Shown: positions 11,324 through 26,479 of the stretch, in pieces | Position numbering within the stretch: position 1 is the stretch's first letter | Layout of the letters: each line of letters begins with the position of its first letter | Source of the DNA: an uncultured Parasphingopyxis sp. | GTDB taxonomy: Bacteria > Pseudomonadota > Alphaproteobacteria > Sphingomonadales > Sphingomonadaceae | DNA: 64,000 nt | Assembly: GCF_937129435.1 (NCBI RefSeq) | Contig: NZ_CAKZNF010000024.1 | Span: 45,178 to 109,177, forward strand | Reading direction: 5' to 3' | The notes under the pieces: generated by a model | The model's database searches: none | The model's input: only the letters and a program-made list of their open reading frames with translations | What the model was told of the DNA's origin: nothing | Position numbers and translations under genes: made by a program

Positions 11324-12882
11324 GCGGTATCCGCCAGTTCGATCGACGCGCCATATTCGCAGATGAAATCGAGATGCGCCGGCGTCTGCTCGACATGGGC
11401 GTCGATCGACCGGCGCATCGTAGTGAACGCCTCGTCCAGCTCGGCCTCACTCATTCGGTCGGCGCGGGGATCGTATCGCTCGGGGATCACATTCTGCCCG
11501 ATAAAGACCGACAGCCAGCTCGGCGGCTGAAACAGCCCGCTTTCATATTCGGGCACGAGACCGCGCCGTTCGAACGCCTCGATCTTCTCCGCCAGGCTGT
11601 CGGGCAGATCCTGATTGCGCATGTCGCGCCAGAAGGGGGCGTCGTCGCGCTGGTTGGCAACATAATGGAGCATGAGGAAATCGCGGATCCGGCTGAATTC
11701 CAGATCCATCAGCCGGTTATACTCGGCGGCGTCGGCCTCGGCGCAATCGCGCTCCGGGAACAGCGCGATCAGGTTCAATATGCCGCTCTGGATCAGGTCG
11801 ATGCTCGTCGATTCGAGCGGCTCAAGGAAGCCGCCCGAAAGGCCGATGGCGACGCAATTCCGGTTCCACAATTTGCGTCGCTTGCCGGTCTTGAAGAACA
11901 GCCTGTTGGGCTCGGCCAGCGGCTCGCCCTCCAGAGTCGTCATCAGCTGGTCGAGCGCCTCGTCGTCGCTCAGATAGGCGTCGCAATAGACATGGCCGTT
12001 GCCGATCCGGTGCTGCAGCGGAATGCGCCATTGCCAGCCGCCCGTCCGCGCGGTGGCACGGGTGAAGGGGCCGGTGGGCCCGTTGATCGCGCAGGGAATG
12101 GCGATGGCGCGGTTGCACGGCAGGTAGCGGCTCCAGTCGTCATAGCCGGTCTGAAGCTCCTGCTCGATCAGCAACCCGCGAAAACCCGAGCAATCGACGA
12201 ACAGGTCGCCTGCGATCTCTTCGCCCGATTCCAGCATGACCGATTCGATGAAATCCGTTTCGCCGTTGGAGGAAGCGCCCACGATCTTGCCCTCGACCCG
12301 CTTCGCGCCTTTCCTCGTAGCGAAATCGGCGAGGAAGGCGCCATAGCGGCTCGCATCGAACTGGAAGGCATAGGAAAAGGCGGAAAGGCCCGATGCCACC
12401 GCTTCGTCGGGCAGCGCGAACCTGTCGCGCCGTGCGGCGACGATCGGGTAGCAATAGCTGCCGAACTCGTCCGCCTTGCCGCGCTGGTGCTGGCGGACCC
12501 AATAGTGATGGAAATCGGCGGGGCCGATCCGCTGACCGAACGCGCCGAAAGGATGGGTGTAGCGGTCGCCGATCGCACCCCAGTCGCAAAATTCGATGCC
12601 GAGTTTGATCGTCGCGCTGGTGCGCCTCATCATCTCGGCCTCGTCGATGCCGAGCGCGCGGTTGAAATCGCGAATCTGCGGCAGCGTCGCCTCGCCGACG
12701 CCGACGGTGCCGATGGCGGCGGATTCGATCAGGGTGATCTGGACACCGATGGGACCGAGCTTGTGCGCCAGCGCGGCGGCGGTCATCCAGCCTGCCGTGC
12801 CGCCGCCGACGATCACGACATCGCGGATGCGCCGATCCGGATTGTCGTTCACATCGTCTCTCCCGCGGTACTGTCCTGCCAT
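11320..12882 (-). CDS. Flavin-dependent tryptophan-halogenase family protein
   Basis: 520 residues with every hallmark of FADH2-dependent halogenases: the nucleotide-binding loop VVIVGGGTAGWM near residue 25, the catalytic Lys93 in ATIKLGIEF, WQWRIP (the WxWxIP halogenase motif) near residue 283, and the Glu of EPLEST near 357. Such genes in sphingomonads and caulobacters are often linked to TonB receptors, and their substrate is usually unknown, so free tryptophan should not be assumed. An FAD reductase is not seen nearby. Confidence 0.88.
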   Translation of the reverse strand: MAGQYRGRDDVNDNPDRRIRDVVIVGGGTAGWMTAAALAHKLGPIGVQITLIESAAIGTVGVGEATLPQIRDFNRALGIDEAEMMRRTSATIKLGIEFCDWGAIGDRYTHPFGAFGQRIGPADFHHYWVRQHQRGKADEFGSYCYPIVAARRDRFALPDEAVASGLSAFSYAFQFDASRYGAFLADFATRKGAKRVEGKIVGASSNGETDFIESVMLESGEEIAGDLFVDCSGFRGLLIEQELQTGYDDWSRYLPCNRAIAIPCAINGPTGPFTRATARTGGWQWRIPLQHRIGNGHVYCDAYLSDDEALDQLMTTLEGEPLAEPNRLFFKTGKRRKLWNRNCVAIGLSGGFLEPLESTSIDLIQSGILNLIALFPERDCAEADAAEYNRLMDLEFSRIRDFLMLHYVANQRDDAPFWRDMRNQDLPDSLAEKIEAFERRGLVPEYESGLFQPPSWLSVFIGQNVIPERYDPRADRMSEAELDEAFTTMRRSIDAHVEQTPAHLDFICEYGASIELADTA

Positions 12883-12918: not shown

Positions 12919-14076
12919 CTACAGACCCGCCTTCTCGTAAACCGCGTAGATTCGATTGGGATCGCCTTCGATCGCATCGGCAATCGCATTCATTCCCTGA
13001 TTGTCGTCGAGAATCCAGCCGACTTCGGCGCGCGTCGCGTGCATCGTCCCCACGCCCCAGCGGCGGATATATTCGATCATCATGAAGGCGAGCTGGCTCG
13101 CCAACCGGCTGTTCTGGTGCTCGGGCAGGACCCCCATCAGCGGCACGCGCCCGCCATTCCAGTCCTTGCGTTTCAGCTTCCAGAGCAGCTTCGCCCAGCC
13201 AAAGGGCAACAGCGAGCCCTTCATGCCGATCAGCGCCTCGTTGATATCGGGCAGCGCGAGCATGAAGGCGGCGGGCTTTCCGTCATATTCCGCGATCAGG
13301 TTGATCGGCGGATAGATGACGGGTTTCAGCTTCTTCTTGATGTACTGGACTTCGGTATCGGTGATCGGGACGAAGCCCCAATTCTTGCTCCAGGCCTGGT
13401 TGAGGATGGAGAGGATGAGGCTCGCTTCCTCGTCATAGCGGTCCATGTCGATCGGCCGGATGGTGATCCTGTCATTGCGTTCGCCGGAGGCGACGATGCG
13501 ATCGATCAGCTTCGGGAAACCGTCGACGATGGGAATGTCATAGGTGAAGAGCTGCTTGGCTTGGCTATAGCCTGCGCCCTCGATCCAGCCCCGATAGGCG
13601 GCCTTGTGATGCCCCATCATGATCATCGGCGCGTGGTCGTGACCTTTGATGAGCAGGCCCGGCTCGTCCCAGACGGACAGGCTGAGCGGACCGAGCGCCC
13701 GCGTCATGCCCTGTTCGCGCAGCCATTGTTCGGCCGCCGCGATCAGCGCGTGCATGACGGCTTCGTCCTCGGCCTCCATCAAGCCCCAATTGCCGGTGCC
13801 GGGGCCCATGCCCTGCTCGACGGGCTGTTCGAGCGCCAGATGATCGAGATGCGCCGAAATCCGTCCGACGACGCGGCCATCGCGTTCGGCCAGGAAGAGC
13901 TGGACCGTGGCATGCTCGAAGAACGGATTCTTTGCCGCGTCCAGCAGCTCGTACACGTCGGATTTGAGCGGCGGCACCCAGTGCGGCGTATCGGCGTTCA
14001 GCCGGTAGGCGAGTTCGACAAAGGCCTTGAGATCCGCCCGGCCATCGACCGGGCGGATGGTGATCGCGTCCGCCAT
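12919..14076 (-). CDS. GNAT-fold acyltransferase, candidate bacterial ceramide synthase
   Basis: 385-residue YghO-like protein. It has an N-terminal GNAT-like half (VQLFLAERDGRVVGRISAH) and a second half with INLIAEYDGKPAAFMLALPD. Proteins of this type are usually annotated as plain N-acetyltransferases. From memory, Caulobacter bCerS, which N-acylates the sphingoid base, belongs to this family and sits at the edge of a locus with spt, acpR and cerR. The same surroundings here make bCerS the best guess. It is 11 bases from the membrane hydroxylase gene and probably co-transcribed. Confidence 0.68.
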   Translation of the reverse strand: MADAITIRPVDGRADLKAFVELAYRLNADTPHWVPPLKSDVYELLDAAKNPFFEHATVQLFLAERDGRVVGRISAHLDHLALEQPVEQGMGPGTGNWGLMEAEDEAVMHALIAAAEQWLREQGMTRALGPLSLSVWDEPGLLIKGHDHAPMIMMGHHKAAYRGWIEGAGYSQAKQLFTYDIPIVDGFPKLIDRIVASGERNDRITIRPIDMDRYDEEASLILSILNQAWSKNWGFVPITDTEVQYIKKKLKPVIYPPINLIAEYDGKPAAFMLALPDINEALIGMKGSLLPFGWAKLLWKLKRKDWNGGRVPLMGVLPEHQNSRLASQLAFMMIEYIRRWGVGTMHATRAEVGWILDDNQGMNAIADAIEGDPNRIYAVYEKAGL

Positions 14077-14086
14077 CGGTCCGTGG

Positions 14087-14869
14087 CTAGCTTTTCATCC
14101 GTTCGACGGGATGGCCCGTGGCGACACCGCCCGACAGGTCGGCAACCCAGGGATAGCGCTTCGCCACTTCGGGCGTGTAGCCGAGGTTGAAGACGGTCTC
14201 GCTCTTCTCCTTGCGATCCTGCCGCTCGTAAAAGGTGCCGAGCAACCTGTCCCAGAAGAAGTTGGTGATGCCGTAATTGCCCTGCTCGTCATGGAAATGG
14301 TGCGCCATGTGACGGGCCTTCATCCGGGCGAGCCACTTGTTCTTCGGCTTGTACTTCAGGTGCTGCACGCAGTGGCAGAACTCGTAGAAACAGGTCGTCA
14401 GCAGGCCGGCGCCGATCGCCATCGCCATGCCGCCGATGCCGCCGATCAGCCAGCCGATCGGTGCGAGAATGACGATAATCGTCGGCAGCGTCGTATAGAG
14501 CGCGCCGAACAGCACCTCGAGATGATTGGGGTCCTGGTGGTGGTCGTAATGGATACGCTTCCAGACCGAGGCGAGCGACTTGTGCTTGAACATCCAGCGG
14601 CCGTGCAGCACCCAGCGGTGCAGCGCATACCAGGCGAGCGGATAGGCGGCGACGGCAATCGCTGCGGCCGCCAGCGACGGCAGCAGCGGCGCCGGATTGT
14701 AATAGAAAACCACGCCGCAGATCAGCGTCAACGCCAGATAGGCGATGATGGCCGGATACTGGAAATAGGCGACGACCAGTTCCCTGAGCGTCATCTTGTC
14801 GAGATAATGCGACCGGTTCCAGATCCCCGGACGCGCCATTGTTGCGGCTTTCACGTCAAAAATCCTCAA
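14087..14869 (-). CDS. Fatty acid hydroxylase/sterol desaturase superfamily membrane enzyme
   Basis: 260 residues with several hydrophobic helices and the histidine clusters that hold a diiron centre: HRWVLH, HYDHH, HCVQH and HMAHH. Members hydroxylate or desaturate lipids at the membrane. Directly downstream of the upstream flippase gene and next to a ceramide-synthase-like gene, its substrate is most likely a sphingoid base or the fatty acyl chain of a ceramide; that is inference from context. Confidence 0.85.
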   Translation of the reverse strand: MRIFDVKAATMARPGIWNRSHYLDKMTLRELVVAYFQYPAIIAYLALTLICGVVFYYNPAPLLPSLAAAAIAVAAYPLAWYALHRWVLHGRWMFKHKSLASVWKRIHYDHHQDPNHLEVLFGALYTTLPTIIVILAPIGWLIGGIGGMAMAIGAGLLTTCFYEFCHCVQHLKYKPKNKWLARMKARHMAHHFHDEQGNYGITNFFWDRLLGTFYERQDRKEKSETVFNLGYTPEVAKRYPWVADLSGGVATGHPVERMKS

Positions 14870-14995: not shown

Positions 14996-16516
14996 TCAGA
15001 CCAGTTTGGCGGTGCGGGCGGGTCTGCCCAGCGCCTCGCGATCCTCTCGATCGAGGCCAAGCCGTAGCGTCACCCAGCAAAGCGGCAAAAAAGTGACGAT
15101 CAATATGGCGGCACGAATCGGCGCGCCCAGCGGTTCCACGGCCCATCCGATCGCAGCCAGTGCGGCGAATCCCGCCAGGCCCGCGGCGAGCCCGCGCAGG
15201 AAGAGGCCGTCGAACGGGTGCAGCCGCTCGGCGAACCAGAGCTCGCATACGGCTGCCCAGGCGACCGCCACCGCGCCGACGGCAACCGCGATGGCCATGC
15301 CTTCGCCGCCCATGGACGGGGTGAGCAAGATGGCGAGAAGCGCCCAGCTGCCGATACCGATCAGGCTGTTGACGAGCGGCCAGCCGCGATGGCCGGTCAT
15401 CTCGACGATCGGCGTCGCCGGTCCGATCACCGCCTCGCCCATCCGCGCGGCGACGAGGATCGTCAGCATCATGATCGCCGCGCCGGCGCCGGGTGCGAAC
15501 AGGCTCAAGATTTCGCTCCCGAGCAGGATCAGCAGCCCGCCGATCGGAATGACGAGCGCGGCCGAGATGCGCGAGGCGAAGGCGTAGAGCGGCGCGATGC
15601 GTTTGCGGTCGCGCGCGGCCTGCGCCGAGCTGAGCGGTGCGAGCACGTAGAGGAAGGCCTGGCGCACGATCAGCGGGATCGAAGCGACCTTGCGCGCAAT
15701 GCCGAACAGCCCGGCCGCCGTCGCGCCCTGCGCGCCCGGCAGCATGACGTTGAGGAGCACGGGCGGGAGGTCGTTGAGCGTGCGGCGGGTGACCGCGCTG
15801 GGAAGCAACGCGACGCCGGACCCCAGCAGGTTGCCGCGCAGCGCGCCGGTCGTTGGCGCGGTGAGCAGCAGGCGAAGGTCGTAATAGCGGCCGAGCAGGC
15901 GGACCGCGAGGATGGCAACCAGCGCGAGCGAGAGGAGGTGTGCGACGAGCAGGCCGATGCTCGTCATCCCGGCGAAGAAAAGGGCCACCGCCAGCGCCAA
16001 CCGCACCAGCTGTTCCCAGAAGATCCGCAACCGGATTTCCGGCCCGAAGGCGCGGCGTGCGCGGGCCGCCGCGGTTGCCACCTCGATAAACGTCCAGAGC
16101 GGCAGCGCCCAGGCGAACAGCGCGATGATGAAGGGCAGGCGGGGCGCGTCTTCGGGCGCGACCGAGAGCAGCCCGGCGATCGCTTCGGCATTGAGCGAGA
16201 CGGCAAGCGCGATCAAGGTGGCGGGAATCACCGTCACCGTCAGCGCGAAGCGCACCGCCGCATGCGCGGCGTCCTCTTGCTGTGTCGGCACGACGCGCTG
16301 CAGGGCTTCGGTCAACGACAGGTCGACAATCTTTTCCGCCATGTTCACCGCCGACCAGAGCACGATGTAGATGCCGTAGGTCGCGATGCCGAAGAGCCAG
16401 GTGTAGATCGGCTGCGCGACGACCTCGATCACTGCGCCGAGCCGCGCAAGCGCCGCCATGCCCGCCCCCTGGGCAACGTCGCGGCGTTCGATATCTGTGT
16501 CCTGCCCCCCGGGCAC
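14996..16516 (-). CDS. Polysaccharide/lipid flippase of the Wzx-MATE (MOP) type
   Basis: 506 residues with about 12-14 hydrophobic helices spread along the whole chain, the pattern of oligosaccharide or lipid-linked-sugar flippases. It starts at a GTG five bases after the lptG stop and so belongs to the lptF-lptG transcription unit. In this setting it may turn over a sphingolipid or glycosphingolipid across the inner membrane, but the sequence alone cannot exclude an exopolysaccharide substrate. Confidence 0.72.
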   Translation of the reverse strand: MPGGQDTDIERRDVAQGAGMAALARLGAVIEVVAQPIYTWLFGIATYGIYIVLWSAVNMAEKIVDLSLTEALQRVVPTQQEDAAHAAVRFALTVTVIPATLIALAVSLNAEAIAGLLSVAPEDAPRLPFIIALFAWALPLWTFIEVATAAARARRAFGPEIRLRIFWEQLVRLALAVALFFAGMTSIGLLVAHLLSLALVAILAVRLLGRYYDLRLLLTAPTTGALRGNLLGSGVALLPSAVTRRTLNDLPPVLLNVMLPGAQGATAAGLFGIARKVASIPLIVRQAFLYVLAPLSSAQAARDRKRIAPLYAFASRISAALVIPIGGLLILLGSEILSLFAPGAGAAIMMLTILVAARMGEAVIGPATPIVEMTGHRGWPLVNSLIGIGSWALLAILLTPSMGGEGMAIAVAVGAVAVAWAAVCELWFAERLHPFDGLFLRGLAAGLAGFAALAAIGWAVEPLGAPIRAAILIVTFLPLCWVTLRLGLDREDREALGRPARTAKLV

Positions 16517-16520
16517 TTAC

Positions 16521-17621
16521 CTATTCCTCGGTTCGGATCAGCACGGCCTCGCCGATCAGCAGGAACAGGAAGAACGGCGCCCAGGCTGCGAGCATTGGCG
16601 GATAGGCGCCGATATTGCCCATGGCGAGCGCGAAATTGTCGGCGACGAAATAGGTGAAGCCGAGCGCCATGCCGATGATCGCGCGGATGAAGAGCTGCCC
16701 CGACCGTGCCAGCCCGAAGCCCGCGATCGCACCGAGGAGCGGCATCAATATCGTCGAAAGCGGGCCGGAAATCTTGTGCCAGAGCCCTGCCTCCAGTCCC
16801 ACGGTTGGCCGGCCCGCCGCCTGCAGGTCGGCAATCGCCTCCTGCAATTGCGGGAAATTGAGCGCGCGCGCCTCGACATTCGACAGCGTGAACTGATCCG
16901 GCGTCACGCCTTCGGCCACGGTGATCGTGCCGAGTTCCTCGCGCTCCACGCCGTCGACCTCGAAGCGCGTCGCGTTCTCCAACCGCCAGGCCTCGCCGTC
17001 GCGCCGCGCGATATCGCCATGGACGATCGTGTGCAGCGTGCCGTCGCGACGGTCGTAAATCGTCACGTCGCGCAGCACCGTGCCGTCGCGGCGCCCGCTG
17101 GCCGATGCCGCGTTGATCAGGTCGTCGCCGTCGCGCACCCAGACATTGGTGGAACTGCTGCTGTCCGGGATCGGGCCGTATTCGACCGCCTCCCAGGCGC
17201 TCAGCGTCGCATAGGCGGGCGCGGTGACGCGCTCGTTGAAGACGAAGAGCAGCCCGGCGATGACGAGGCTCGACAGGATCAGCGGCGCCAGGATCTGGTG
17301 CGCCGATGCGCCCGCCGCCTTCATCGAGATGACCTCGCTATTCGCGTTGAGGGTCGAGAGGGCGATCAACGAGCCCAATAGCGCTGAAAAAGGCAGGAAA
17401 CGCTCAATCAGTTGCGGTACGCGCAGCGAGACATAGAGCCACAGTTCGGCTTCGCCATTGCCGGGCTGGGCAAGAATCGCCCCCGATTCGCCGAGCAGGT
17501 CGAGCGCCATCAGGATGACGACGAGCCCGGCAAGCACAGCGAAGACGCGCGTCACGAAAACGCGCGCCATATACCAGGCGATCGTCCGCGACGGGAAGAA
17601 TTGAAGCGAGACGGCGGCCAT
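16521..17621 (-). CDS. lptG: LptG-family permease of an Lpt-type lipid exporter
   Basis: 366 residues, YjgP/YjgQ family: two N-terminal helices (RVFAVLAGLVVILMALDLL; LIERFLPFSALLGSLIALSTL), the coupling segment ELSSELDVF-like NANSEVISMKAAG, a beta-jellyroll periplasmic domain, and three to four C-terminal helices. With LptF and the LptB ATPase it extracts lipid from the inner membrane. The gene lies three bases after lptF. Placement inside a sphingolipid locus raises the possibility of a non-LPS cargo. Confidence 0.88.
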   Translation of the reverse strand: MAAVSLQFFPSRTIAWYMARVFVTRVFAVLAGLVVILMALDLLGESGAILAQPGNGEAELWLYVSLRVPQLIERFLPFSALLGSLIALSTLNANSEVISMKAAGASAHQILAPLILSSLVIAGLLFVFNERVTAPAYATLSAWEAVEYGPIPDSSSSTNVWVRDGDDLINAASASGRRDGTVLRDVTIYDRRDGTLHTIVHGDIARRDGEAWRLENATRFEVDGVEREELGTITVAEGVTPDQFTLSNVEARALNFPQLQEAIADLQAAGRPTVGLEAGLWHKISGPLSTILMPLLGAIAGFGLARSGQLFIRAIIGMALGFTYFVADNFALAMGNIGAYPPMLAAWAPFFLFLLIGEAVLIRTEE

Positions 17622-17624
17622 CGA

Positions 17625-18830
17625 CTAGTCGGCTGCCACGGTGCGGCGTCGCCGGAAGAGCGATTTCACTGCGCTGAACGTTTTCGAGAAGGCGCGTTCG
17701 AGTGCGCCAATCGGCTGGCCGCCGGGCACATAGGCGATCTGATAGTACATCCAGGCGATCATCGCACTGAACACGACGAACGGTACCCATAGCGAAATCC
17801 AGGGGCTGACAAGGCCCAGCGCCGCCGCATCTTCGCCATATTGGCAGATCTTGTGATAGGTCACGACGATCACGATCGACAGGAACACGCCGAGCGCCGA
17901 ACTCGATCGCTTGGGCGGCACGGCGAGCGCCACCGCCAGCAACGGCAGCAGGAACATCATCGCCACCTCGGCGAGGCGGTAATGGAAATTCGCCCGGCTC
18001 GCCATGCGCAGGTCCGGGGGCGCGCGTGGATCGTCTCCGACGCGAACGAGTTCGGGCAGGGTCAGCTCGCGATGAATGCCGCCGCGGCCGCGAAAGGCGT
18101 CGACCCGGGGCAGGTTGATGGGCAGGTCGTGGCTTTCGAAGCTCAGCACGCGGGGGCGGCTGAAATCGGCCTCGTCATGGACGAGGCGGCCATTGGTCAG
18201 GCGCAAGAGGATCGTGTCGGGATCGTCGGTGCCCATGAACGTGCCCTGCTCGGCGGCGACGGCGAGGTCGCGGCCCTCGTCGGTCGTCGTGCGGACGAAG
18301 ATGCCATAGAGATCGGTGCCTTCATTCTCGCTGCGTTCGACGCGCAATGTCATGCCGCTGCCCAGCCGGTTGAACTCGCCGACCTTGATCGAGGCGCCGA
18401 GCGCGCCCTGGCGCAGCTCGAACTGGAGATTCTCGTACGAGTATCGCGCCATCGGCTGAAGATAGCCGACGATGACGAGGTTCAGCAGCACGAAGCCGAT
18501 GGTGAAAAGATAGGGGACGAAGAGCAGCCGCCGATAGCCGAGGCCGACGGCGCGAAAGACGTCGAGCTCGGACGAAAGGGCGAGCTTGCGGAAGGCGAGC
18601 AGGATGCCGAGCAGCAGGCCGACCGGGATCGCCATCGACAGATATTCGGGAACGAGATTGGCCAGCATCTGCCAGACGACGCTGACCGGGCCGCCCTCCT
18701 TCGCCACGAAATCGAACAATCGCAGCATCTTGTCGAGCACCAGCAGCATGGCGGCAATGACCAGCGTTCCCACCAGCGGCAGGATGATGAGCCGGAACAT
18801 ATACCGGTCGGTGGCGGTAAAAAGTTGCAA
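17625..18830 (-). CDS. lptF: LptF-family permease of an Lpt-type lipid exporter
   Basis: 401 residues with the same architecture as LptG: N-terminal helices, the cytoplasmic coupling motif SSELDVFRAVGLG that contacts LptB, a periplasmic jellyroll, and C-terminal helices. First gene of a minus-strand run lptF-lptG-flippase, then hydroxylase and acyltransferase. Its 130-base upstream region is shared with the divergent DUF2141 gene. Many proteobacteria carry lptFG beside lptD/surA; that neighbourhood is absent here. Confidence 0.88.
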   Translation of the reverse strand: MQLFTATDRYMFRLIILPLVGTLVIAAMLLVLDKMLRLFDFVAKEGGPVSVVWQMLANLVPEYLSMAIPVGLLLGILLAFRKLALSSELDVFRAVGLGYRRLLFVPYLFTIGFVLLNLVIVGYLQPMARYSYENLQFELRQGALGASIKVGEFNRLGSGMTLRVERSENEGTDLYGIFVRTTTDEGRDLAVAAEQGTFMGTDDPDTILLRLTNGRLVHDEADFSRPRVLSFESHDLPINLPRVDAFRGRGGIHRELTLPELVRVGDDPRAPPDLRMASRANFHYRLAEVAMMFLLPLLAVALAVPPKRSSSALGVFLSIVIVVTYHKICQYGEDAAALGLVSPWISLWVPFVVFSAMIAWMYYQIAYVPGGQPIGALERAFSKTFSAVKSLFRRRRTVAAD

Positions 18831-18963
18831 CTTTCAGTCGTTCCATGACCACAATTTGGCCGCAAGGCTCGGCGATAGAAGGCAGAAATAGGGGAATAGC
18901 CTGTGTTTTGCCATGGCCGATATTGGGCGATCGGGCCGAGGCGCGTAATTTTTGGAGTTATTG

Positions 18964-19479
18964 ATGCTGAAAAGCAAAATCGTCCCGATCCTTGCCGCGA
19001 CCGCACTGACCGCTCTTTCGAGCGGCGCCAATGCGGGCACGCGTGTGCCGAACGACCTGTCCAACTGCCGCTCCGGCGCTTCGGGCACGGCGGTGCTCGT
19101 CAACGTCCAGGGCTTTCGCCAGGGCACCGGCCGCGTCCGCGTGCAATCCTATAGCGGCGCGAACAACTGGCTGGAACGCGGCCAGTGGCTGCACCGCGTC
19201 GACATTCCCGTACGGCTGCAGGGCAATGACATGACCGTCTGCCTGCCGCTTCCTGGTCCCGGTTCCTACGGCATCGCCGTGCGGCATGATCTCAACAATA
19301 ACGGCCGGTCGGACCGGCGCGACGGCGGCGGGTTCTCGCGCAATCCCAACATCTCCTTTCCGTTCAACATGGAGCCGAACTATTCGGAGGTTTCGTTCCG
19401 CGCCAATGCGGGCGTGAACCGCCTGAATATCGTCCTGAACTATCTTCAGGGCGCGTCCGTGGAGCCGATCCAGTTCTAG
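18964..19479 (+). CDS. DUF2141 exported protein
   Basis: 171 residues from ATG 18964, preceded by GGAG seven bases upstream; the track TTG start is rejected. A signal peptide ending NAGT/ANA is followed by the DUF2141 beta-rich core: VLVNVQGFRQGTGRVRVQSY, then a GSYGIAVRHDLNNNGRSDR block that resembles an EF-type Asp/Asn loop. Function unknown. The next gene starts four bases after its stop, which ties it to the lipid kinase. Confidence 0.82.
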   Translation: MLKSKIVPILAATALTALSSGANAGTRVPNDLSNCRSGASGTAVLVNVQGFRQGTGRVRVQSYSGANNWLERGQWLHRVDIPVRLQGNDMTVCLPLPGPGSYGIAVRHDLNNNGRSDRRDGGGFSRNPNISFPFNMEPNYSEVSFRANAGVNRLNIVLNYLQGASVEPIQF

Positions 19480-19482
19480 CCG

Positions 19483-20457
19483 ATGGTGTGCGTCGCCCTC
19501 CTCTCCAATCCGCGATCGACCGGAAATGTGGCCATGCTGCCGCGGATCCGGAAATATTGCGCGGAGAGGGCCGACATCTTCCATTATGAAGTGGAGGATG
19601 TCGACCAGATCGGGGCGGCGCTCGCGACCATCGCGCGGGTGAAACCGCAGATCCTGGCGATCAACGGCGGCGACGGCACGGTGCAGGCGGCGATGACCGA
19701 ACTGCACCATGGCGCGCATTTCGGCGATACGCCGCCGCCGGTCGCGGTCCTGCCCAACGGCAAGACGAACCTGATCGCGCTCGATCTGGGTGCCGAGGGC
19801 GATCCGATCGCCGCGCTCGACAAGATCATGGAAATCGCGCGCACGGGCCTCGACGGTCACATCGTCGGGCGCGAGCTGATCTCGCTGTCGGGCGGAACGG
19901 CGAACGGGCGGCCGGTGATCGGCATGTTCGTGGGCGGGGCCGGGCTGTCGGACACGATCCTCTATTGCCGGCACAAAATCTATCCGCTCGGCCTGCCGAA
20001 CGGGATCAGCCATGTGCTCACCGCCATTGCGCTGATCTTCGCCTCGTTCTTGCGGATCAAGGCGCGCTTCCTGCCGCCGCCGGCCCGGCCGGTCAGCATT
20101 TCGATCATGCAGCAGGGGGAATATCAGGGGAAATATGCCCTGTTGATCATCACCACGCTCGAACGGCTGCTGCTGAAGACGCAGACCAATCATGACGACG
20201 GCACCACCGGCCCGCTGAAGCTGATGGCGGTCGAACAGCGCCCGCTCGCGATGATGCGCGCGCTCTGGGCCAGCCTGATGGGCAAGCTCGGCCGGTCGAA
20301 AATGTCGGGCGTGCACCTGTCGCGCGGCACCGAAATCCGCATCGAAGGCGCCCATTCCAGCGTGATCTTCGACGGCGAACTGTTCGAGACCAATAACGAC
20401 CGGCCGATCGTCCTGACGCCGACACGGCCTGTACCGTTCGTCTCGCTGGCGGCGTGA
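19483..20457 (+). CDS. Diacylglycerol-kinase-family lipid kinase, candidate ceramide kinase
   Basis: 324 residues with the DAGK/LCB5 catalytic loop AINGGDGTVQAA at residues 60-70 and the PNGKTNLIA segment. The family phosphorylates diacylglycerol, sphingoid bases or ceramide with ATP. Caulobacter has a ceramide kinase of this family (CpgB, in the ceramide phosphoglycerate pathway) in its sphingolipid locus, so ceramide is the favoured substrate here; diacylglycerol is the alternative. The stop overlaps the start of the nucleotidyltransferase gene, so the two are translationally coupled. Confidence 0.75.
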   Translation: MVCVALLSNPRSTGNVAMLPRIRKYCAERADIFHYEVEDVDQIGAALATIARVKPQILAINGGDGTVQAAMTELHHGAHFGDTPPPVAVLPNGKTNLIALDLGAEGDPIAALDKIMEIARTGLDGHIVGRELISLSGGTANGRPVIGMFVGGAGLSDTILYCRHKIYPLGLPNGISHVLTAIALIFASFLRIKARFLPPPARPVSISIMQQGEYQGKYALLIITTLERLLLKTQTNHDDGTTGPLKLMAVEQRPLAMMRALWASLMGKLGRSKMSGVHLSRGTEIRIEGAHSSVIFDGELFETNNDRPIVLTPTRPVPFVSLAA

Positions 20458-21344
20458 CCTCGCTTCCCGAACTGGTCGCGGCCGAGCTCGGCGAGCCGGT
20501 CGATCCGCGCGTATCGGCCTTCGCCGCGCACATCGCCGGCGAATATGGCGAGGCTGCGCGCGCCGTGCTGTTCTACGGCTCTTGCCTTCGCAGCGAGCAG
20601 CTCGATGGCGAGATGCTCGATTTCTACCTGATCGTTTCCGATTATCGCGCCGCCTATGCCAAGCGCTGGCTGGCGACCGCGAACCGCCTGATCCCGCCCA
20701 ACGTCTTTCCGGCGAACTATGACGGGTTGCAGGCGAAGATCGCCGTGCTCAGCGAAGCCGATTTTCTGCGCGAGATGGGCGATGATGCGCGCAGCGTATC
20801 GGTCTGGGCGCGCTTCGCCCAGCCTTCGCGGCTGGTCTGGGCGGCCGACGAAGCGGCGCGGCGGGATGCGATCGAAACCGTCGCGCAGGCTGCGCCAACG
20901 CTCTTCCGGCACACATTGCCCATGATGGACGAGGCCGATGCGGCCGATGCGCTGGCGATATGGCGCCGCGGCTTCGCGCTGACCTATTCCGCCGAACTGC
21001 GCGCCGAACGCAAGACGCGGTCGGGTTCGATCGTCGATGCGACGCCCGATCGCTATGCGCGTTTCGGCGAGGCGGCGCTGGCGGCGATCGGAGACGAGGC
21101 GGCGAAAAACCCGAAGCGGATGGCGCGCTGGTGGCGGTCGACCCGCCGCAAAGGCAAGGCGTTGACCCTGCTACGCCTCACCAAGGCAAGCGCGACCTAT
21201 GCCGGCGGCGTCGATTATCTCGCCTGGAAGATCAACCGGCATGCCGGCACCGATATCCGCGTCAAACCCTGGCAACGGCGATGGCCGCTGCTCGGCGCGG
21301 TCGTGCTGCTGCCGCGACTCCTGATTAGGGGCGCCGTCCGCTAG
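20454..21344 (+). CDS. Nucleotidyltransferase-fold protein, possibly Tam41-like
   Basis: 296 residues from GTG 20454. Residues 39-60 read LFYGSCLRSEQLDGEMLDFYLI: a GS motif followed after ~12 residues by a single Asp region, the signature of the nucleotidyltransferase fold. The YGSxxxxQ...MLDFxxxV spacing resembles Tam41-type CDP-diacylglycerol synthases. The C-terminus is helical and basic with a hydrophobic tail (LLGAVVLLPRLL) that may touch the membrane. Coupling to a lipid kinase suggests it acts on the phospholipid or ceramide phosphate product. The exact reaction is not shown by the sequence. Confidence 0.6.
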   Translation: MTSLPELVAAELGEPVDPRVSAFAAHIAGEYGEAARAVLFYGSCLRSEQLDGEMLDFYLIVSDYRAAYAKRWLATANRLIPPNVFPANYDGLQAKIAVLSEADFLREMGDDARSVSVWARFAQPSRLVWAADEAARRDAIETVAQAAPTLFRHTLPMMDEADAADALAIWRRGFALTYSAELRAERKTRSGSIVDATPDRYARFGEAALAAIGDEAAKNPKRMARWWRSTRRKGKALTLLRLTKASATYAGGVDYLAWKINRHAGTDIRVKPWQRRWPLLGAVVLLPRLLIRGAVR

Positions 21345-21363: not shown

Positions 21364-23337
21364 CTATTCCGCCGCGATCTGTGCCCGGGTCCGCTCGCGA
21401 AGCGCGGTGCGGATCGCTTCGGCAAGTTCGGCCATGGTGAACGGCTTTCGCAGCACCATCCGGTTTTCGAGCTGATCGAGTTCGCCGCCCTCGCCGACAT
21501 AGCCGGTCACGAAAACGACAGGCAGATCGGGATGATCGGGGGCGATATGGGCGACGAGTTCGGGCCCGGTCATATCCGGCATCACGACATCGGTGAGCAA
21601 CAGGTCGATCGGCTGCGACCCGCTGAGAGCAGCAAGCGCGGCTTGCGCACCGTCGCACGGAATGACGGCGCATTGCAGCTCCTCAAGCGCCTCGGACGTC
21701 GCGCGAAGCACCCTCGGATCGTCCTCGACGACGAGGATTGTGTGGCCGGCAATGTGCCGCTCGCCTGCTTCGGGACCGAGCGAACCGGCATCGGCCGACG
21801 CCTTTTGCACCGCGCCGCCATGGCGCGGGAGATAGATCGAAACCGTCGTTCCCTCGCCGACGGTGCTGTCGATCCCGACATCGCCGCCCGATTGCCGGGC
21901 GAAACCGAAAATCTGGCTCATCCCGAGGCCGGTACCCTTGCCGACCTCCTTGGTCGTGAAAAAGGGTTCGAACACGCGCTCGATCACCTCGGGTCCCATA
22001 CCGCAGCCATCGTCGCTGACGGCGATGCGGACATAGTCGCCCGCCGGCAGCTCGTTGATCTGCCGATCGTCGAGCGGGCAATTGGCGACGGCGATCCGCA
22101 TGGCGCCGGTGCCGTCCATCGCGTCGCGGCCGTTGACGGCGAGGTTGACGATGGCGCTTTCCAGCTGGCGCGGATCGACCCAGACCGGCCAGCAATCGGT
22201 TTCGCAATCGATCGACACCTCGATCCGCTCGCCGATCGTCCGTTCGATCAGCCCGGCCATCTGATCGACAAGCTCGGCCGGATCGGTCGCCGCGGGCAAT
22301 AACGGTTCGGACCGGGCAAAGGCGAGCAGGCGTCGCGTCAGCGCGGCGGCCCTGTCGGCGCCGTCCGCCGCATTGTCCAAATGCCGCCGGATCGCATCGT
22401 CGTCATCGTCCAGCTTGCGCCGGGCGAGATCGATTCCGCCGACCACGACCGACAGCATATTGTTGAAATCGTGCGCGATGCCGCCGGTCAGCCGGCCGAC
22501 GGCTTCCAGTTTCTGCGCCTGGCGGAGCTTCTGTTCGGCGGCGACGCGCTCGGTCACCTCGGCGCGCAATTCGGCGTTGAGCGTTTCGAGTTCGGCGGTG
22601 CGCTGGCTGACCGCTTCTTCCAGTTCATCGGCACGCTGGTCGGCGCGGTGGCGGTCGCGAAATGCCCGTACCGTGGCCCATGCAAGGGCCAGCGCGACGA
22701 TCCCGAGGATCACGCCCGCAATCGTCAACAGTGTCGCGAGCAGGTTCGACTTTTCGGTGGTCTCGATCCGTGCTGCCGACAGCTCGGCGAGCCGGGCACG
22801 CTCATTGTCGGCGATCCGGTCGAGCGTACTGGTGATGCCCGCTCCCGCACTGCTGACGGCGGTCTCGTTATGCAACGACAGAGCCTCCCAATTGCGCCGG
22901 GCATTGGCGTAGCTGGCCGTCCGTGAAAGCTCCCGGCCATATTGATCGTAGAGCAGACCGACCTGACGCGTCAGTTCGAGTTGCTCGGGCCGGTCGTCGA
23001 GCAATTGTTCGAGCCGGCCGATCTGGCGGCCCGCAATGCGCCATTCGTCGCGATAGATTGTGCCGAGCCGACGGTCGCTGTTGATGACGAACCGGCCGAG
23101 CGCCGCTTCCGAGCGCGATCGCGCGCCCTCGATGGCGCGGGTCAGCATGATGATCTCGTAGCTGCGGCGTTCGCGATCCGCCGCCGCGTCGCGCTCGCTG
23201 TTCGACTGGGCGACGAGATAGAGCAGCCCGGCCATCATCAGCGCGAGCAGCAGTGCCCCTGCGCTCAGCAGGCCGCGACGCCAGGCCTGGCGGGAACTAT
23301 TCTCCCCGCCGCCGAAAAGCCAGTTTTCTTCCACCAT
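21364..23337 (-). CDS. Hybrid sensor histidine kinase with CHASE3-like sensor
   Basis: 657 residues. One N-terminal helix (~22-44), a helical periplasmic CHASE3-type sensor (~45-195), a second helix (~199-222) and a coiled coil lead to HisKA with His289 in GGIAHDFNNML. The ATPase domain has Asn402, DDGCG and GTGLGM. A C-terminal receiver carries Asp583 in LTDVVMPD. It is convergent with the nucleotidyltransferase gene and lies inside the lipid locus, so it may sense envelope state. No output regulator is encoded next to it. Confidence 0.87.
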   Translation of the reverse strand: MVEENWLFGGGENSSRQAWRRGLLSAGALLLALMMAGLLYLVAQSNSERDAAADRERRSYEIIMLTRAIEGARSRSEAALGRFVINSDRRLGTIYRDEWRIAGRQIGRLEQLLDDRPEQLELTRQVGLLYDQYGRELSRTASYANARRNWEALSLHNETAVSSAGAGITSTLDRIADNERARLAELSAARIETTEKSNLLATLLTIAGVILGIVALALAWATVRAFRDRHRADQRADELEEAVSQRTAELETLNAELRAEVTERVAAEQKLRQAQKLEAVGRLTGGIAHDFNNMLSVVVGGIDLARRKLDDDDDAIRRHLDNAADGADRAAALTRRLLAFARSEPLLPAATDPAELVDQMAGLIERTIGERIEVSIDCETDCWPVWVDPRQLESAIVNLAVNGRDAMDGTGAMRIAVANCPLDDRQINELPAGDYVRIAVSDDGCGMGPEVIERVFEPFFTTKEVGKGTGLGMSQIFGFARQSGGDVGIDSTVGEGTTVSIYLPRHGGAVQKASADAGSLGPEAGERHIAGHTILVVEDDPRVLRATSEALEELQCAVIPCDGAQAALAALSGSQPIDLLLTDVVMPDMTGPELVAHIAPDHPDLPVVFVTGYVGEGGELDQLENRMVLRKPFTMAELAEAIRTALRERTRAQIAAE

Positions 23338-23451: not shown

Positions 23452-24711
23452 TCAGCCGATCGCGCCGGTCGCCTTGCCCGCGGATTCGAACATGCCGAGG
23501 ATCTGTTCGACCTGTTCGGCCGAATGCTCCGCACATAGCGAACAGCGCAGCAGGTAGATGCCCGCAGGCGTCGCAGGCGGCCGCGCCATGTTCACATACA
23601 GCCCTTCTTCGAGCAGCGCCTGCCACATCCGCACGGCCTGTTCCTGGTCGTCGAGCAGCACGGCGAGGATCGCGCTTTCGGGTTCCTCTGTCGCGAGCCG
23701 GAAACCGAGATCGCGCAACCCCTTGTGCAGCCGCTTCGAATTTTCCCACAGATGCGCGCGCTTGTTCCCGGCGTGCATCAGCTTGCGGATCGAGGTCGCG
23801 GCGGTGGCGACCACCGATGGCGGCAGCGAGGCCGTGAAGGTGTAGGGACGGCAGACGAGCCGGAGAAATTCGGTCTTGGGATGGTTGGACACGCAGAAAC
23901 CGCCGACGGTGCCGACGCTTTTGGAGAAGGTCCCGATCACGAAATCGACCTGGTCGAGCACCCCCTGCGCTTCGGCGACGCCGCGGCCATGTTCGCCGAA
24001 AAAGCCCATCGAATGCGCTTCGTCGACCAGCACCATCGCGCCGAACTTCTTGGCCACCGTCACCATCTTGTCGAGCGGCGCGATATCACCGAGCATCGAA
24101 TAGACGCCCTCGAGCACGACGAGTTTGCCGGCCTCGGGCGGCAGGCGGCCGAGACGCTTTTCGAGGTCTTCGACATTGTTGTGGCGGAAGCGGACGATAT
24201 CGGCATTGCCGAGAAAGCAGCCGTCATAGATGGAGGCATGGCTGTCGGCGTCGAGGATGACATAATCGCCCTTGCCGGCGAGCGTGGAAACGATGCCGAG
24301 ATTGGCCTGGTAGCCGGTCGAAAAGACCATGGCATGGCCCATGCCGTAGAATTCGCACAGCGCCGCCTCGACATCCTTGTGCCCGACATAGGTGCCGTTA
24401 AGCACCCGGCTGCCCGTCGTGCCCGATCCGAATTCCTTGAGCGCGTCGACACCGGCCTGGATGACATCGGGATCGAAGGTCATGCCCATATAGTTGTAGG
24501 TGCCGAGCAGGATCGTGTCCTTGCCCTGGATCACCGCTTCGGTCGGCGATTTCACCTCGTCCATGACGATGGCGAAGGGGTCGCGCACGCCCGTTCCGAG
24601 CAGCCGGTCGCGTTCCTGGATCAGCGGTTCGAATTTTTCGAACAGGTCGCGCGATTGTGGTCCATCCGCGGCCAGCACATCGGCTGCGGTCTGGCTTCCG
24701 GCCATACTCAT
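23452..24711 (-). CDS. spt: Serine palmitoyltransferase
   Basis: PLP enzyme condensing serine with palmitoyl thioester to 3-ketosphinganine, the committed step of sphingolipid synthesis. From ATG 24711 it is 419 residues. The catalytic set His158 (DADSHAS), Asp230 and His233 (DEAHSMG) and PLP-Lys264 (GTFSKSVGT) is offset by one from the numbering of the 420-residue Sphingomonas paucimobilis enzyme. The soluble length, with no membrane helix, is typical of the bacterial form. Its start overlaps the acpR stop by four bases. Confidence 0.94.
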   Translation of the reverse strand: MSMAGSQTAADVLAADGPQSRDLFEKFEPLIQERDRLLGTGVRDPFAIVMDEVKSPTEAVIQGKDTILLGTYNYMGMTFDPDVIQAGVDALKEFGSGTTGSRVLNGTYVGHKDVEAALCEFYGMGHAMVFSTGYQANLGIVSTLAGKGDYVILDADSHASIYDGCFLGNADIVRFRHNNVEDLEKRLGRLPPEAGKLVVLEGVYSMLGDIAPLDKMVTVAKKFGAMVLVDEAHSMGFFGEHGRGVAEAQGVLDQVDFVIGTFSKSVGTVGGFCVSNHPKTEFLRLVCRPYTFTASLPPSVVATAATSIRKLMHAGNKRAHLWENSKRLHKGLRDLGFRLATEEPESAILAVLLDDQEQAVRMWQALLEEGLYVNMARPPATPAGIYLLRCSLCAEHSAEQVEQILGMFESAGKATGAIG

Positions 24712-24950
24712 TGCTGCAACTCTCCCACGGCGTCGACCAGCTGGCCCACCGTCTCGATTTCCGCCTGCTGGTTCATCGTGATGATGATATCGAATTCGTC
24801 CTCGACCGAGGCGACGAAGTCCATCACGGTCAGGCTGTCCCATTCGAGGTCGCCGACGAAGGTGGTTTCTTCCTTGAGGTCGACGCCCTTTTCATTGAAC
24901 GGCTCGATCAAGCCCTTCACCTTTTCGAACGTCGCGGTGCGATCTGTCAT
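24708..24950 (-). CDS. acpR: Acyl carrier protein dedicated to sphingolipid synthesis (AcpR)
   Basis: 80 residues, acidic, with the phosphopantetheine site DLEWDSLTVMDF (Ser39). The overlap with spt implies that it delivers the acyl group used by serine palmitoyltransferase, as known for AcpR in Caulobacter. It is the first gene of the acpR-spt unit. The dedicated acyl-ACP synthetase described beside it in Caulobacter is not found in this window. Confidence 0.88.
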   Translation of the reverse strand: MTDRTATFEKVKGLIEPFNEKGVDLKEETTFVGDLEWDSLTVMDFVASVEDEFDIIITMNQQAEIETVGQLVDAVGELQQ

Positions 24951-25049: not shown

Positions 25050-25574
25050 ATGACGCAAACGCCCGAAAATGCCGAGGATGCGTGGCCCGAGGCGATGAAC
25101 TACCTGCTTCGCACCGCGCAGCAGAACCACGTGCATTGGAGCCTGATTGCCGACCAGAAGGCGAGTGTGCTCGTCGGCGCGAGCTTCGTCGTGTTCACAC
25201 TGGCGCTGCGGGAGGGGATGGGCGCGTCGCCGAGCATCGCCTCGTTCATTCTGGCCGCCGCATCCTTCCTTTCCGCCGTGCTCGCCGTGATGGCGATCAT
25301 TCCTTCGACGAAAAAGGCGCCCGGCACGCCCAATCTGCTGTTTTTCGGCGGTTTCGCGGGGATCGGCGAGGATGAATATATCACCGACATGCTGGAAAGG
25401 ACGAAGGACCGCGAGGAGATCTACCGTCTCATGCTGCGCGACATCCACCAGAATGGCAGCGTGCTTCACCGGAAGAAATACCGCTTTCTCGCCTATGCGT
25501 TTCGGGCCTTTCTTGTCGGCCTGGTGCTCTCCTTCGGCGCCTATATCGCCGAACTCGTGCTGCGCGCGGGCTAG
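25050..25574 (+). CDS. DUF5706 (Pycsar-effector-like) membrane protein
   Basis: 174 residues from ATG 25050. The N-terminal NHVHWSLIADQKASVLVGASFVVF is the DUF5706 signature (helix, AD-K-A, then a first membrane helix). Further helices lie near residues 60-82 and at the C-terminus (FLVGLVLSFGAYIAELVL). Family members serve as pore-forming effectors in Pycsar defence when paired with a cyclic nucleotide cyclase, but no cyclase gene is present. Stand-alone members are common in sphingomonads and may have another job. Confidence 0.72.
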   Translation: MTQTPENAEDAWPEAMNYLLRTAQQNHVHWSLIADQKASVLVGASFVVFTLALREGMGASPSIASFILAAASFLSAVLAVMAIIPSTKKAPGTPNLLFFGGFAGIGEDEYITDMLERTKDREEIYRLMLRDIHQNGSVLHRKKYRFLAYAFRAFLVGLVLSFGAYIAELVLRAG

Positions 25575-26479
25575 AGCCAGCCCTTTTCGCGATACCAGTT
25601 TGCGGTCTGGGCCAGTCCGTCGTCGTCCCGATAGCGCGGCGCCCATAGATCGGCTGGCGGCGCGCGATCGGGATCGACCGCCCAGTCCGGATGGCAGAAA
25701 TAACGGGCGCGGTCCGGCGTCAGCTTCGCATTCTTTCCCCGATACAGCCGGTCCGACCGGGCGGCGAGACGGACGAGCCAGGCGGGCATCGAATAGGTAC
25801 GCACCTTTCGCCCGACGGCGCGGCCCAGCGCTTCGCCGAATTCGCGGTGCGTCAGCCCGCCCTCGCGCCGGTCGTCGGGTTCGTAAAGAGCGCCGATCGT
25901 ACCCGCCGCGTTGACGATAGCGGCGATGAGCTCACACAGGTCCGCGACATGGATGAGCGAGATCCGGCCCGGGGGCGGGAGAATGATTCTGCCCTTCGCC
26001 GCCATCTTGAACAGCTCCAGCGTTTCGCGGTCGCCGGGGCCGTAGACGGCGGGCGGGCGGATGATCGTCCAGTCGAGCCCGCTCTCGCGCACCCGCTCTT
26101 CGCTCCCCGCCTTCGACCAGCCATAGAGCGAAAGGTCGGGCTCACGCGCGGCGAGCGAGGAGATATGGACGAAGCGCCGCACGCCCTTCGCCTGCGCCGC
26201 CGCGATCATGCGTTCGGTGCCGGCGATATTCGCCTCGGCAAAGCCCTCGCGATCGGGCGCGGAGATGGCGCCGGCGATATGGACCACCGCACCCGCGCCC
26301 TCGCAGAGCTTTTCGAGGGCCGGGGTGTCGCCGAGATCGCCTTCGATCCAGCAAACGCCGTCGCGCGGCTCCTGCGGACGGCGCGTCAGGGCGCGGAGCG
26401 TGTGGCCGCTGCCGAGCGCCAGGTCGAGAAAGTGCCGGCCGACGAAACCGGTGCCGCCCGTAACGGCGATAACGCTCAC
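25571..26479 (-). CDS. Atypical SDR, candidate ceramide reductase (CerR-like)
   Basis: 302-residue NAD(P)-dependent epimerase/dehydratase. It has the Rossmann loop VTGGTGFVG at residues 6-14, the AGAVVHIAGAI segment and a YGWSK (YxxxK) catalytic pair near residue 131. In Caulobacter an atypical SDR next to spt and acpR (CerR) reduces the keto group after N-acylation; the same neighbourhood supports that role here. General sugar-epimerase activity is less likely in this context but cannot be excluded. It overlaps proB by four bases. Confidence 0.72.
   Translation of the reverse strand: MSVIAVTGGTGFVGRHFLDLALGSGHTLRALTRRPQEPRDGVCWIEGDLGDTPALEKLCEGAGAVVHIAGAISAPDREGFAEANIAGTERMIAAAQAKGVRRFVHISSLAAREPDLSLYGWSKAGSEERVRESGLDWTIIRPPAVYGPGDRETLELFKMAAKGRIILPPPGRISLIHVADLCELIAAIVNAAGTIGALYEPDDRREGGLTHREFGEALGRAVGRKVRTYSMPAWLVRLAARSDRLYRGKNAKLTPDRARYFCHPDWAVDPDRAPPADLWAPRYRDDDGLAQTANWYREKGWL

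What the first reader, a model, noticed from the sequence alone, without database searches (positions are those of the whole stretch)
19483..21344. Lipid kinase translationally coupled to a Tam41-like nucleotidyltransferase
The kinase stop overlaps the GTG start of a protein with YGSxxxxQ...MLDF spacing like Tam41 CDP-diacylglycerol synthases. A kinase followed by a nucleotidyltransferase would suggest phosphorylation of a lipid and then activation with CTP, that is, a route to a CDP-ceramide or CDP-lipid intermediate for anionic sphingolipid head groups.
Basis: inference. Interest (0 to 1): 0.65.

Follow-up and report, generated by a model that had tools for sequence, protein, structure and literature searches.

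The report
Ceramide kinase with Tam41-like CTP enzyme
Two overlapping bacterial genes encode a ceramide kinase and a partner shaped like the mitochondrial enzyme that loads phospholipids with CTP; together they probably turn ceramide into an activated CDP-ceramide for making charged sphingolipids, a step whose chemistry is still unproven in any organism.

Summary
The kinase gene (19483-20457) and the next gene (20454-21344) share the 4 bases GTGA. The second protein has no Pfam or NCBIfam match of its own, but it has the Tam41 fold: AlphaFold pLDDT 90, and the five best PDB matches are all Tam41. Its family passes a decoy-controlled profile comparison with Tam41, and one distant member exceeds Pfam's Tam41 cut-off.

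The pair lies in the alphaproteobacterial phosphosphingolipid cluster and corresponds to Caulobacter cpgB (proven ceramide kinase) and cpgC (needed for ceramide phosphoglycerate, mechanism 'unidentified'). In 385 sampled Alphaproteobacteria the two proteins occur in exactly the same 42 genomes, even where unlinked. Every genome checked also has CdsA. A nucleotide-activated ceramide was already suggested (PMC11324152); CDP-ceramide is named in no paper of the library searched.

This genome lacks a CpgA-type transferase and a close CpgD, so a one-unit head group is expected; which enzyme condenses it with CDP-ceramide is open. Verdict: new member of a known pair, with a strong mechanistic prediction but no biochemical proof.

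The parts
19483..20457 (+). Lipid kinase, CpgB-type ceramide kinase (inferred substrate: ceramide)
   Evidence: Pfam DAGK_cat 8.5e-13; GGDGT at 62-66 and DGE at 297-299 conserved; model pLDDT 79 matches DgkB, SphK1 and YegS structures; co-occurs with the downstream gene in every sampled genome
20454..21344 (+). Tam41-fold nucleotidyltransferase, CpgC-type; predicted CTP:ceramide-1-phosphate cytidylyltransferase
   Evidence: Model pLDDT 90.3; top five PDB matches are Tam41; profile comparison above all decoys; invariant Y41, G42, D56, K95, R120, P124, E181, R183
20454..20457 (+). GTGA overlap of the kinase stop and the nucleotidyltransferase start (translational coupling, inferred)
   Evidence: Sequence; same overlap in 21 of 56 linked homologous loci
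18952..19479 (+). DUF2141 protein, first gene of the probable three-gene operon (stop 3 bases before the kinase ATG)
   Evidence: Pfam PF09912 5.5e-18; the same family lies directly upstream of the kinase in L145, L146, L148, L158
23452..24843 (-). Serine palmitoyltransferase (spt); the ORF as listed has an over-extended start
   Evidence: NCBIfam NF047603, 792 bits against a cut-off of 670
24708..24950 (-). Acyl carrier protein of the ceramide cluster (acpR position)
   Evidence: PP-binding 3e-09; conserved next to spt
25571..26479 (-). NAD-dependent reductase at the CerR position
   Evidence: Pfam Epimerase 3.8e-25; conserved in the cluster
12919..14076 (-). GNAT-family protein at the position of bacterial ceramide synthase (cerS)
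   Evidence: Pfam Acetyltransf_1 1.1e-07; conserved in the cluster
14087..14869 (-). Fatty acid hydroxylase family protein of the same cluster
   Evidence: Pfam PF04116 2.1e-21; conserved in the cluster
16521..17621 (-). LptF/LptG-type permease (second copy type; sphingolipid export, inferred)
   Evidence: Pfam PF03739 1e-74
17625..18830 (-). LptF/LptG-type permease, partner of the above
   Evidence: Pfam PF03739 2.3e-59
14996..16516 (-). Polysaccharide-flippase-like membrane protein, candidate lipid flippase
   Evidence: Pfam Polysacc_synt_3 1.6e-07; conserved in L145, L146, L148, L158

Best explanation
The two genes are the CpgB-CpgC pair of alphaproteobacterial phosphosphingolipid synthesis. 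The kinase phosphorylates ceramide (made by the spt, ACP, reductase and GNAT genes of the same window) to ceramide 1-phosphate. The second protein is a peripheral Tam41-fold cytidylyltransferase that couples ceramide 1-phosphate to CMP from CTP, releasing pyrophosphate and giving CDP-ceramide. A phosphotransfer step that is not encoded next to the pair in this genome then swaps CMP for the head group (glycerate or phosphoglycerate), giving an anionic ceramide phospholipid that the LptF/LptG pair helps export. Shown here: gene anatomy, fold, single-Asp active-site pattern, obligate pairing and pathway context. Shown by others in Caulobacter: CpgB makes ceramide 1-phosphate, and CpgC is needed for ceramide phosphoglycerate. 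Inferred: that this nucleotidyltransferase is CpgC (by position and conserved partners), that CTP is the nucleotide, ceramide 1-phosphate the acceptor and CDP-ceramide the product.
For: Fold: AlphaFold model pLDDT 90.3; Foldseek ranks 7ecd (bacterial Tam41 with CTP-Mg, E 7.4e-7, TM 0.55-0.60) first and the S. pombe Tam41 chains of 6ig4 and 6ig2 next. Sequence: hhalign score 29.9 against a two-sequence Tam41 profile, versus at most 20.4 in 150 shuffles and 22.2 in 146 unrelated profiles; distant member L027 exceeds Pfam's Tam41 cut-off (29.0 against 24 bits) and L030 and L182 fall just short. Tam41 has only one of the three usual acidic residues (PMC11646218), as here (D56 invariant, Y58 at the next metal position). 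Pairing: the same 42 of 385 genomes. Cluster: spt, ACP, reductase, AMP-binding enzyme, CDP-alcohol transferase, phosphoesterase and LptF/G around the pair, in the order reported for CC_1165-CC_1155. Caulobacter genetics: CC_1160 and CC_1161 are both needed for CPG, and CC_1160 is a ceramide kinase. CdsA is present in all 25 genomes checked.
Against: No assay of the substrate. The window protein itself scores nothing against Pfam or NCBIfam. Several positions shared by the solved Tam41 proteins differ: the Lys of RFQKP is Gln, the Asp of GDxRM is Glu, and the HYS/DYS region has no counterpart. No dedicated CDP-alcohol transferase is found in this genome beyond two enzymes that are probably PgsA and Pss, so the condensation step is unexplained. 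The C. crescentus CpgC sequence itself could not be fetched, so orthology rests on position and gene partners.
Confidence: 0.66

Rival explanations
1. The second protein is a second CDP-diacylglycerol synthase: it acts on phosphatidic acid, and the kinase makes that phosphatidic acid from diacylglycerol.
For: Solved Tam41 proteins use phosphatidic acid, and the kinase family includes diacylglycerol kinases.
Against: All 25 genomes checked have ordinary CdsA. The kinase's relative CpgB phosphorylates ceramide (PMC10331486). The pair sits with ceramide genes, and the Caulobacter counterpart is needed for ceramide phosphoglycerate. Some positions shared by the solved Tam41 proteins are changed in this family.
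Confidence: 0.12
2. The second protein is a nucleotidyltransferase-fold enzyme of the sphingolipid pathway that activates the head group rather than the lipid, or joins ceramide 1-phosphate and a glycerate unit directly, so no CDP-ceramide forms.
For: Zik and co-workers' model has CpgC convert ceramide 1-phosphate to CPG in one step (cited). This genome has no dedicated transferase for CDP-ceramide. CpgD, another CTP enzyme of the pathway, activates phosphoglycerate (PMC12275187).
Against: The nearest fold is a lipid-acting enzyme, and the match runs over the C-terminal domain through which Tam41 binds membranes. Direct condensation without activation is energetically unfavourable, as PMC11324152 notes. 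The ceramide kinase is needed for CPG, which head-group activation alone would not require.
Confidence: 0.16
3. The protein is a catalytically dead Tam41-fold scaffold or regulator for the kinase.
For: The second Asp of the classical nucleotidyltransferase motif is missing (Y58).
Against: Tam41 lacks it too and is active (PMC11646218). YG, D56, K95, R120, E181, R183, R241 and K244 are invariant across 42 diverse members. Kinase and nucleotidyltransferase persist together even when unlinked.
Confidence: 0.04

Closest known systems
CpgB-CpgC (CC_1160-CC_1161 / ccna_01218-01219) of Caulobacter crescentus phosphosphingolipid synthesis
   Same: Neighbouring kinase and predicted CDP-DAG-synthase-like protein in a cluster with spt, ACP, reductase, ceramide synthase and LptF/G copies
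   Different: Here there is a GTGA overlap, a DUF2141 gene directly upstream, and no CpgA and no close CpgD in the genome; CpgC has no proven activity in any organism
Tam41 / TAMM41 CDP-diacylglycerol synthase (Pfam PF09139; PDB 6ig2, 6ig4, 7ecd)
   Same: Whole-length fold, motif order, single acidic residue, conserved Lys and Arg
   Different: About 12-17% identity; YGS-to-Asp spacing 15 versus 19; RFQKP is RFAQP, GDxRM is AELRA; strictly tied to a ceramide kinase rather than to cardiolipin synthesis
CdsA (PF01148)
   Same: Would catalyse the analogous reaction, CTP plus lipid phosphate
   Different: Unrelated integral membrane protein, present separately in every genome checked
CpgD / CC_1152 phosphoglycerate cytidylyltransferase
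   Same: CTP enzyme of the same lipid pathway
   Different: Different family (MobA-like), acts on phosphoglycerate; only a 32% paralog exists in this genome

Membership tests
CpgB ceramide kinase | DAGK_cat domain with GGDG ATP motif | tested here: met
   GGDGT at residues 62-66
CpgB ceramide kinase | Genome makes ceramide and encodes a CpgC-type partner | tested here: met
   spt, ACP, reductase, GNAT in the window; AMP-binding enzyme at G000 C48, 48% identity; identical 42-genome set
CpgB ceramide kinase | Lack of the CxxxCxxC motif of eukaryotic ceramide kinase (PMC10331486) | tested here: met
   Only three scattered Cys in the translation, no CxxxCxxC
CpgB ceramide kinase | Phosphorylates ceramide in vitro | not testable with these tools
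   Needs an assay
CpgC (CC_1161) | Gene position between spt and the ceramide kinase in the phosphosphingolipid cluster | tested here: met
   Order spt, NT, kinase, CDP-alcohol transferase, phosphoesterase in several class members matches CC_1162-CC_1158; in the window a histidine kinase gene has slipped in between NT and spt
CpgC (CC_1161) | Direct sequence orthology to the C. crescentus protein | not tested
CpgC (CC_1161) | Required for ceramide phosphoglycerate | not testable with these tools
   Shown only in Caulobacter
Tam41 (PF09139) | Whole-length Tam41 fold | tested here: met
   Foldseek top five, TM 0.47-0.60
Tam41 (PF09139) | Pfam model above curated cut-off | tested here: not met
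   Window protein: no match; 1 of 42 family members passes (L027, 29.0 bits), L030 falls just short. So it is Tam41-like, not filed as Tam41
Tam41 (PF09139) | Single conserved acidic residue in the nucleotidyltransferase motif | tested here: met
   D56 invariant, second position Tyr in most; Tam41 pattern from PMC11646218
Tam41 (PF09139) | CDP-DAG synthase activity on phosphatidic acid | not testable with these tools
   Needs an assay

The most novel reading that the evidence does not exclude
A Tam41-related enzyme family has been recruited to make CDP-ceramide, a nucleotide-activated sphingolipid not named in any paper of the library searched, and household CDP-alcohol transferases (PgsA or Pss) or an unknown enzyme then use it. 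Bacteria would thus run a CDP-lipid pathway on ceramide parallel to the CDP-diacylglycerol pathway.
Probability: 0.5. Interest if true: 0.75.

Novelty: new member of a known kind. Interest (0 to 1): 0.52.

Why it matters
CpgC is the enzyme needed for ceramide phosphoglycerate whose mechanism the 2025 and 2026 papers still call unidentified. The single-Asp Tam41 fold gives a concrete reaction, a point mutant and an assay. If CDP-ceramide exists, it is a new activated lipid and explains how Gram-negative bacteria build anionic sphingolipids that can stand in for lipopolysaccharide. The strict kinase-nucleotidyltransferase pairing also gives a genomic marker for phosphosphingolipid makers.

Tried and rejected
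Direct PDB sequence search with the nucleotidyltransferase found nothing; its profile found only a generic nucleotidyltransferase at E 0.038. NCBIfam gave nothing useful for the family. The genome-collection scan returned only sphingomonads and unnamed relatives, no Caulobacter, so orthology to CC_1161 was argued from gene order. The viral fold library gave only generic nucleotidyltransferases. A possible fused form in L194 is an artefact of a masked stretch. Apparent loss of the kinase in Sphingobium was rejected: it is elsewhere in the genome. The promoter scan found no sigma-70-like site near the operon. CdsA replacement was rejected because CdsA is always present.

Full report
Observation. 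ORF 19483-20457 (+) encodes 324 residues with a diacylglycerol-kinase catalytic domain (8.5e-13). Its stop TGA (20455-20457) overlaps the GTG start (20454) of a 296-residue ORF that ends at 21344. A DUF2141 gene ends 3 bases before the kinase ATG, so the three look like one operon. The overlap is conserved: among 58 homologous loci from other genomes, 56 have the kinase directly upstream, 21 with the same 4-base overlap, including 8 of 9 genomes of the window's genus. One congener's contig has the same length as the Parasphingopyxis marina contig, so the window's genus is probably Parasphingopyxis (inference).

What the second protein is. On its own it matches nothing in Pfam or NCBIfam and nothing in the PDB by sequence. 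An alignment of 42 relatives gives invariant Y41, G42, D56, P81, P82, V84, K95, W118, R120, Q123, P124, E181, R183, E185, R241, K244, T248, Y255 and K259. AlphaFold with 58 sequences gives pLDDT 90.3 and pTM 0.88. Foldseek against the PDB puts Tam41 structures in the first five places: 7ecd (Firmicutes Tam41 with CTP-Mg) at E 7.4e-7, then chains of 6ig4 and 6ig2 (S. pombe); aminoglycoside and other nucleotidyltransferases follow at E 3e-4 or weaker, with much lower TM-scores. Profile comparison with the two Tam41 sequences taken from the PDB alignments aligns YGS, the [ML][LI]DF strand, the K-[YI]-[AG]-V strand, the RF-x-x-P segment and the Y-x-x-[DE]-x-R segment in order. Its score of 29.9 exceeds 150 column shuffles (maximum 20.4) and 146 unrelated two-sequence profiles (maximum 22.2). 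Member L027 passes the Pfam Tam41 cut-off (29.0 against 24 bits), while L030 (23.2) and L182 (21.8) fall just short.

Context. In 20 neighbourhoods from the class, the nucleotidyltransferase and kinase mostly sit beside spt, acyl carrier protein, an SDR-type reductase, an AMP-binding enzyme, an LptF/LptG pair, a GNAT protein, a fatty acid hydroxylase and, in several, a CDP-alcohol phosphatidyltransferase, a calcineurin-type phosphoesterase and a MobA-like nucleotidyltransferase. This is the order and content described for C. crescentus CC_1168-CC_1152, with the nucleotidyltransferase at CC_1161 (CpgC) and the kinase at CC_1160 (CpgB). The window itself carries spt (792 bits to NF047603), the ACP, the reductase, the GNAT protein, the hydroxylase, both LptF/G proteins and a flippase-like protein. 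The remaining ceramide gene, the AMP-binding enzyme, is elsewhere in the genome at 48% identity.

Pairing. In a class-wide sample of 385 genomes the nucleotidyltransferase is found in 42 and the CpgB-type kinase in 42, and the two lists are identical. The hypergeometric chance is 4e-57, though genomes are related and not independent. In G123, G186, G202 and G227 the two genes lie on different contigs, and in Sphingobium the kinase is likewise elsewhere in the genome, so the pairing is functional and not mere linkage. Two sphingomonads with spt (G012, G145) lack both. 33 of the 42 genomes also hit the serine palmitoyltransferase model at a strict threshold; the other nine were not examined at a looser one.

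Literature. CpgB is a ceramide kinase (PMC10331486). Mutants in CC_1160 or CC_1161 make no CPG (PMC11324152). That paper noted an InterPro CDP-DAG-synthase domain in CC_1161 and suggested an NDP-activated ceramide; it also said that the condensing enzyme is unknown. PMC12275187 (2025) and PMC13228409 (2026) still call CpgC's mechanism unidentified. The phrase CDP-ceramide occurs in none of the 5.39 million papers held.

What is missing here. This genome has only two CDP-alcohol phosphatidyltransferases, probably PgsA and Pss by score and length, as do most of its congeners, and only a 32% paralog of the CpgD-like protein. So CPG2 is not expected. In Caulobacter CPG forms without CpgA, which fits. 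The first condensation must use PgsA, Pss or an enzyme outside this family. CdsA is present in all 25 genomes checked, so the Tam41-like protein is not the household CDP-DAG synthase. The genome is a draft of 93 contigs, 93% complete, so single absences carry some doubt; complete congeners agree.

Kinase fold. The kinase model (pLDDT 79) matches DgkB, sphingosine kinase 1 and YegS, as expected for a ceramide kinase of the bacterial class.

Conclusion. The finding is right in substance. It is a new genomic instance of the CpgB-CpgC pair. What this work adds is the evidence that CpgC-type proteins are a Tam41-related family with an obligate ceramide kinase partner. The product CDP-ceramide is the best prediction (0.66 for the whole mechanism) but has not been shown.

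Noticed in passing
18952-19479: A DUF2141 protein gene lies 3 bases upstream of the kinase; the same order (DUF2141, kinase, nucleotidyltransferase) recurs in four other genomes of the class (L145, L146, L148, L158). Its role is unknown.
   Followed up: partly
14996-18830: An LptF/LptG-type pair plus a flippase-like protein in the sphingolipid cluster, a candidate sphingolipid export machine.
   Followed up: partly
21364-23337: A hybrid histidine kinase with CHASE3-like and receiver domains sits between the nucleotidyltransferase and spt genes; possible regulator.
   Followed up: no
11320-12882: Tryptophan-halogenase family flavoprotein next to the ceramide cluster.
   Followed up: no
L141:10013-11119 and L141:14615-15826: In some alphaproteobacteria two CDP-alcohol phosphatidyltransferase genes lie in the cluster, one directly upstream of the kinase, giving a transferase, kinase and CTP-enzyme set in one operon.
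   Followed up: partly
L080, L082, L085, L086, L093, L065: In Sphingobium and some relatives the nucleotidyltransferase gene is separated from the kinase, which is elsewhere in the genome.
   Followed up: yes
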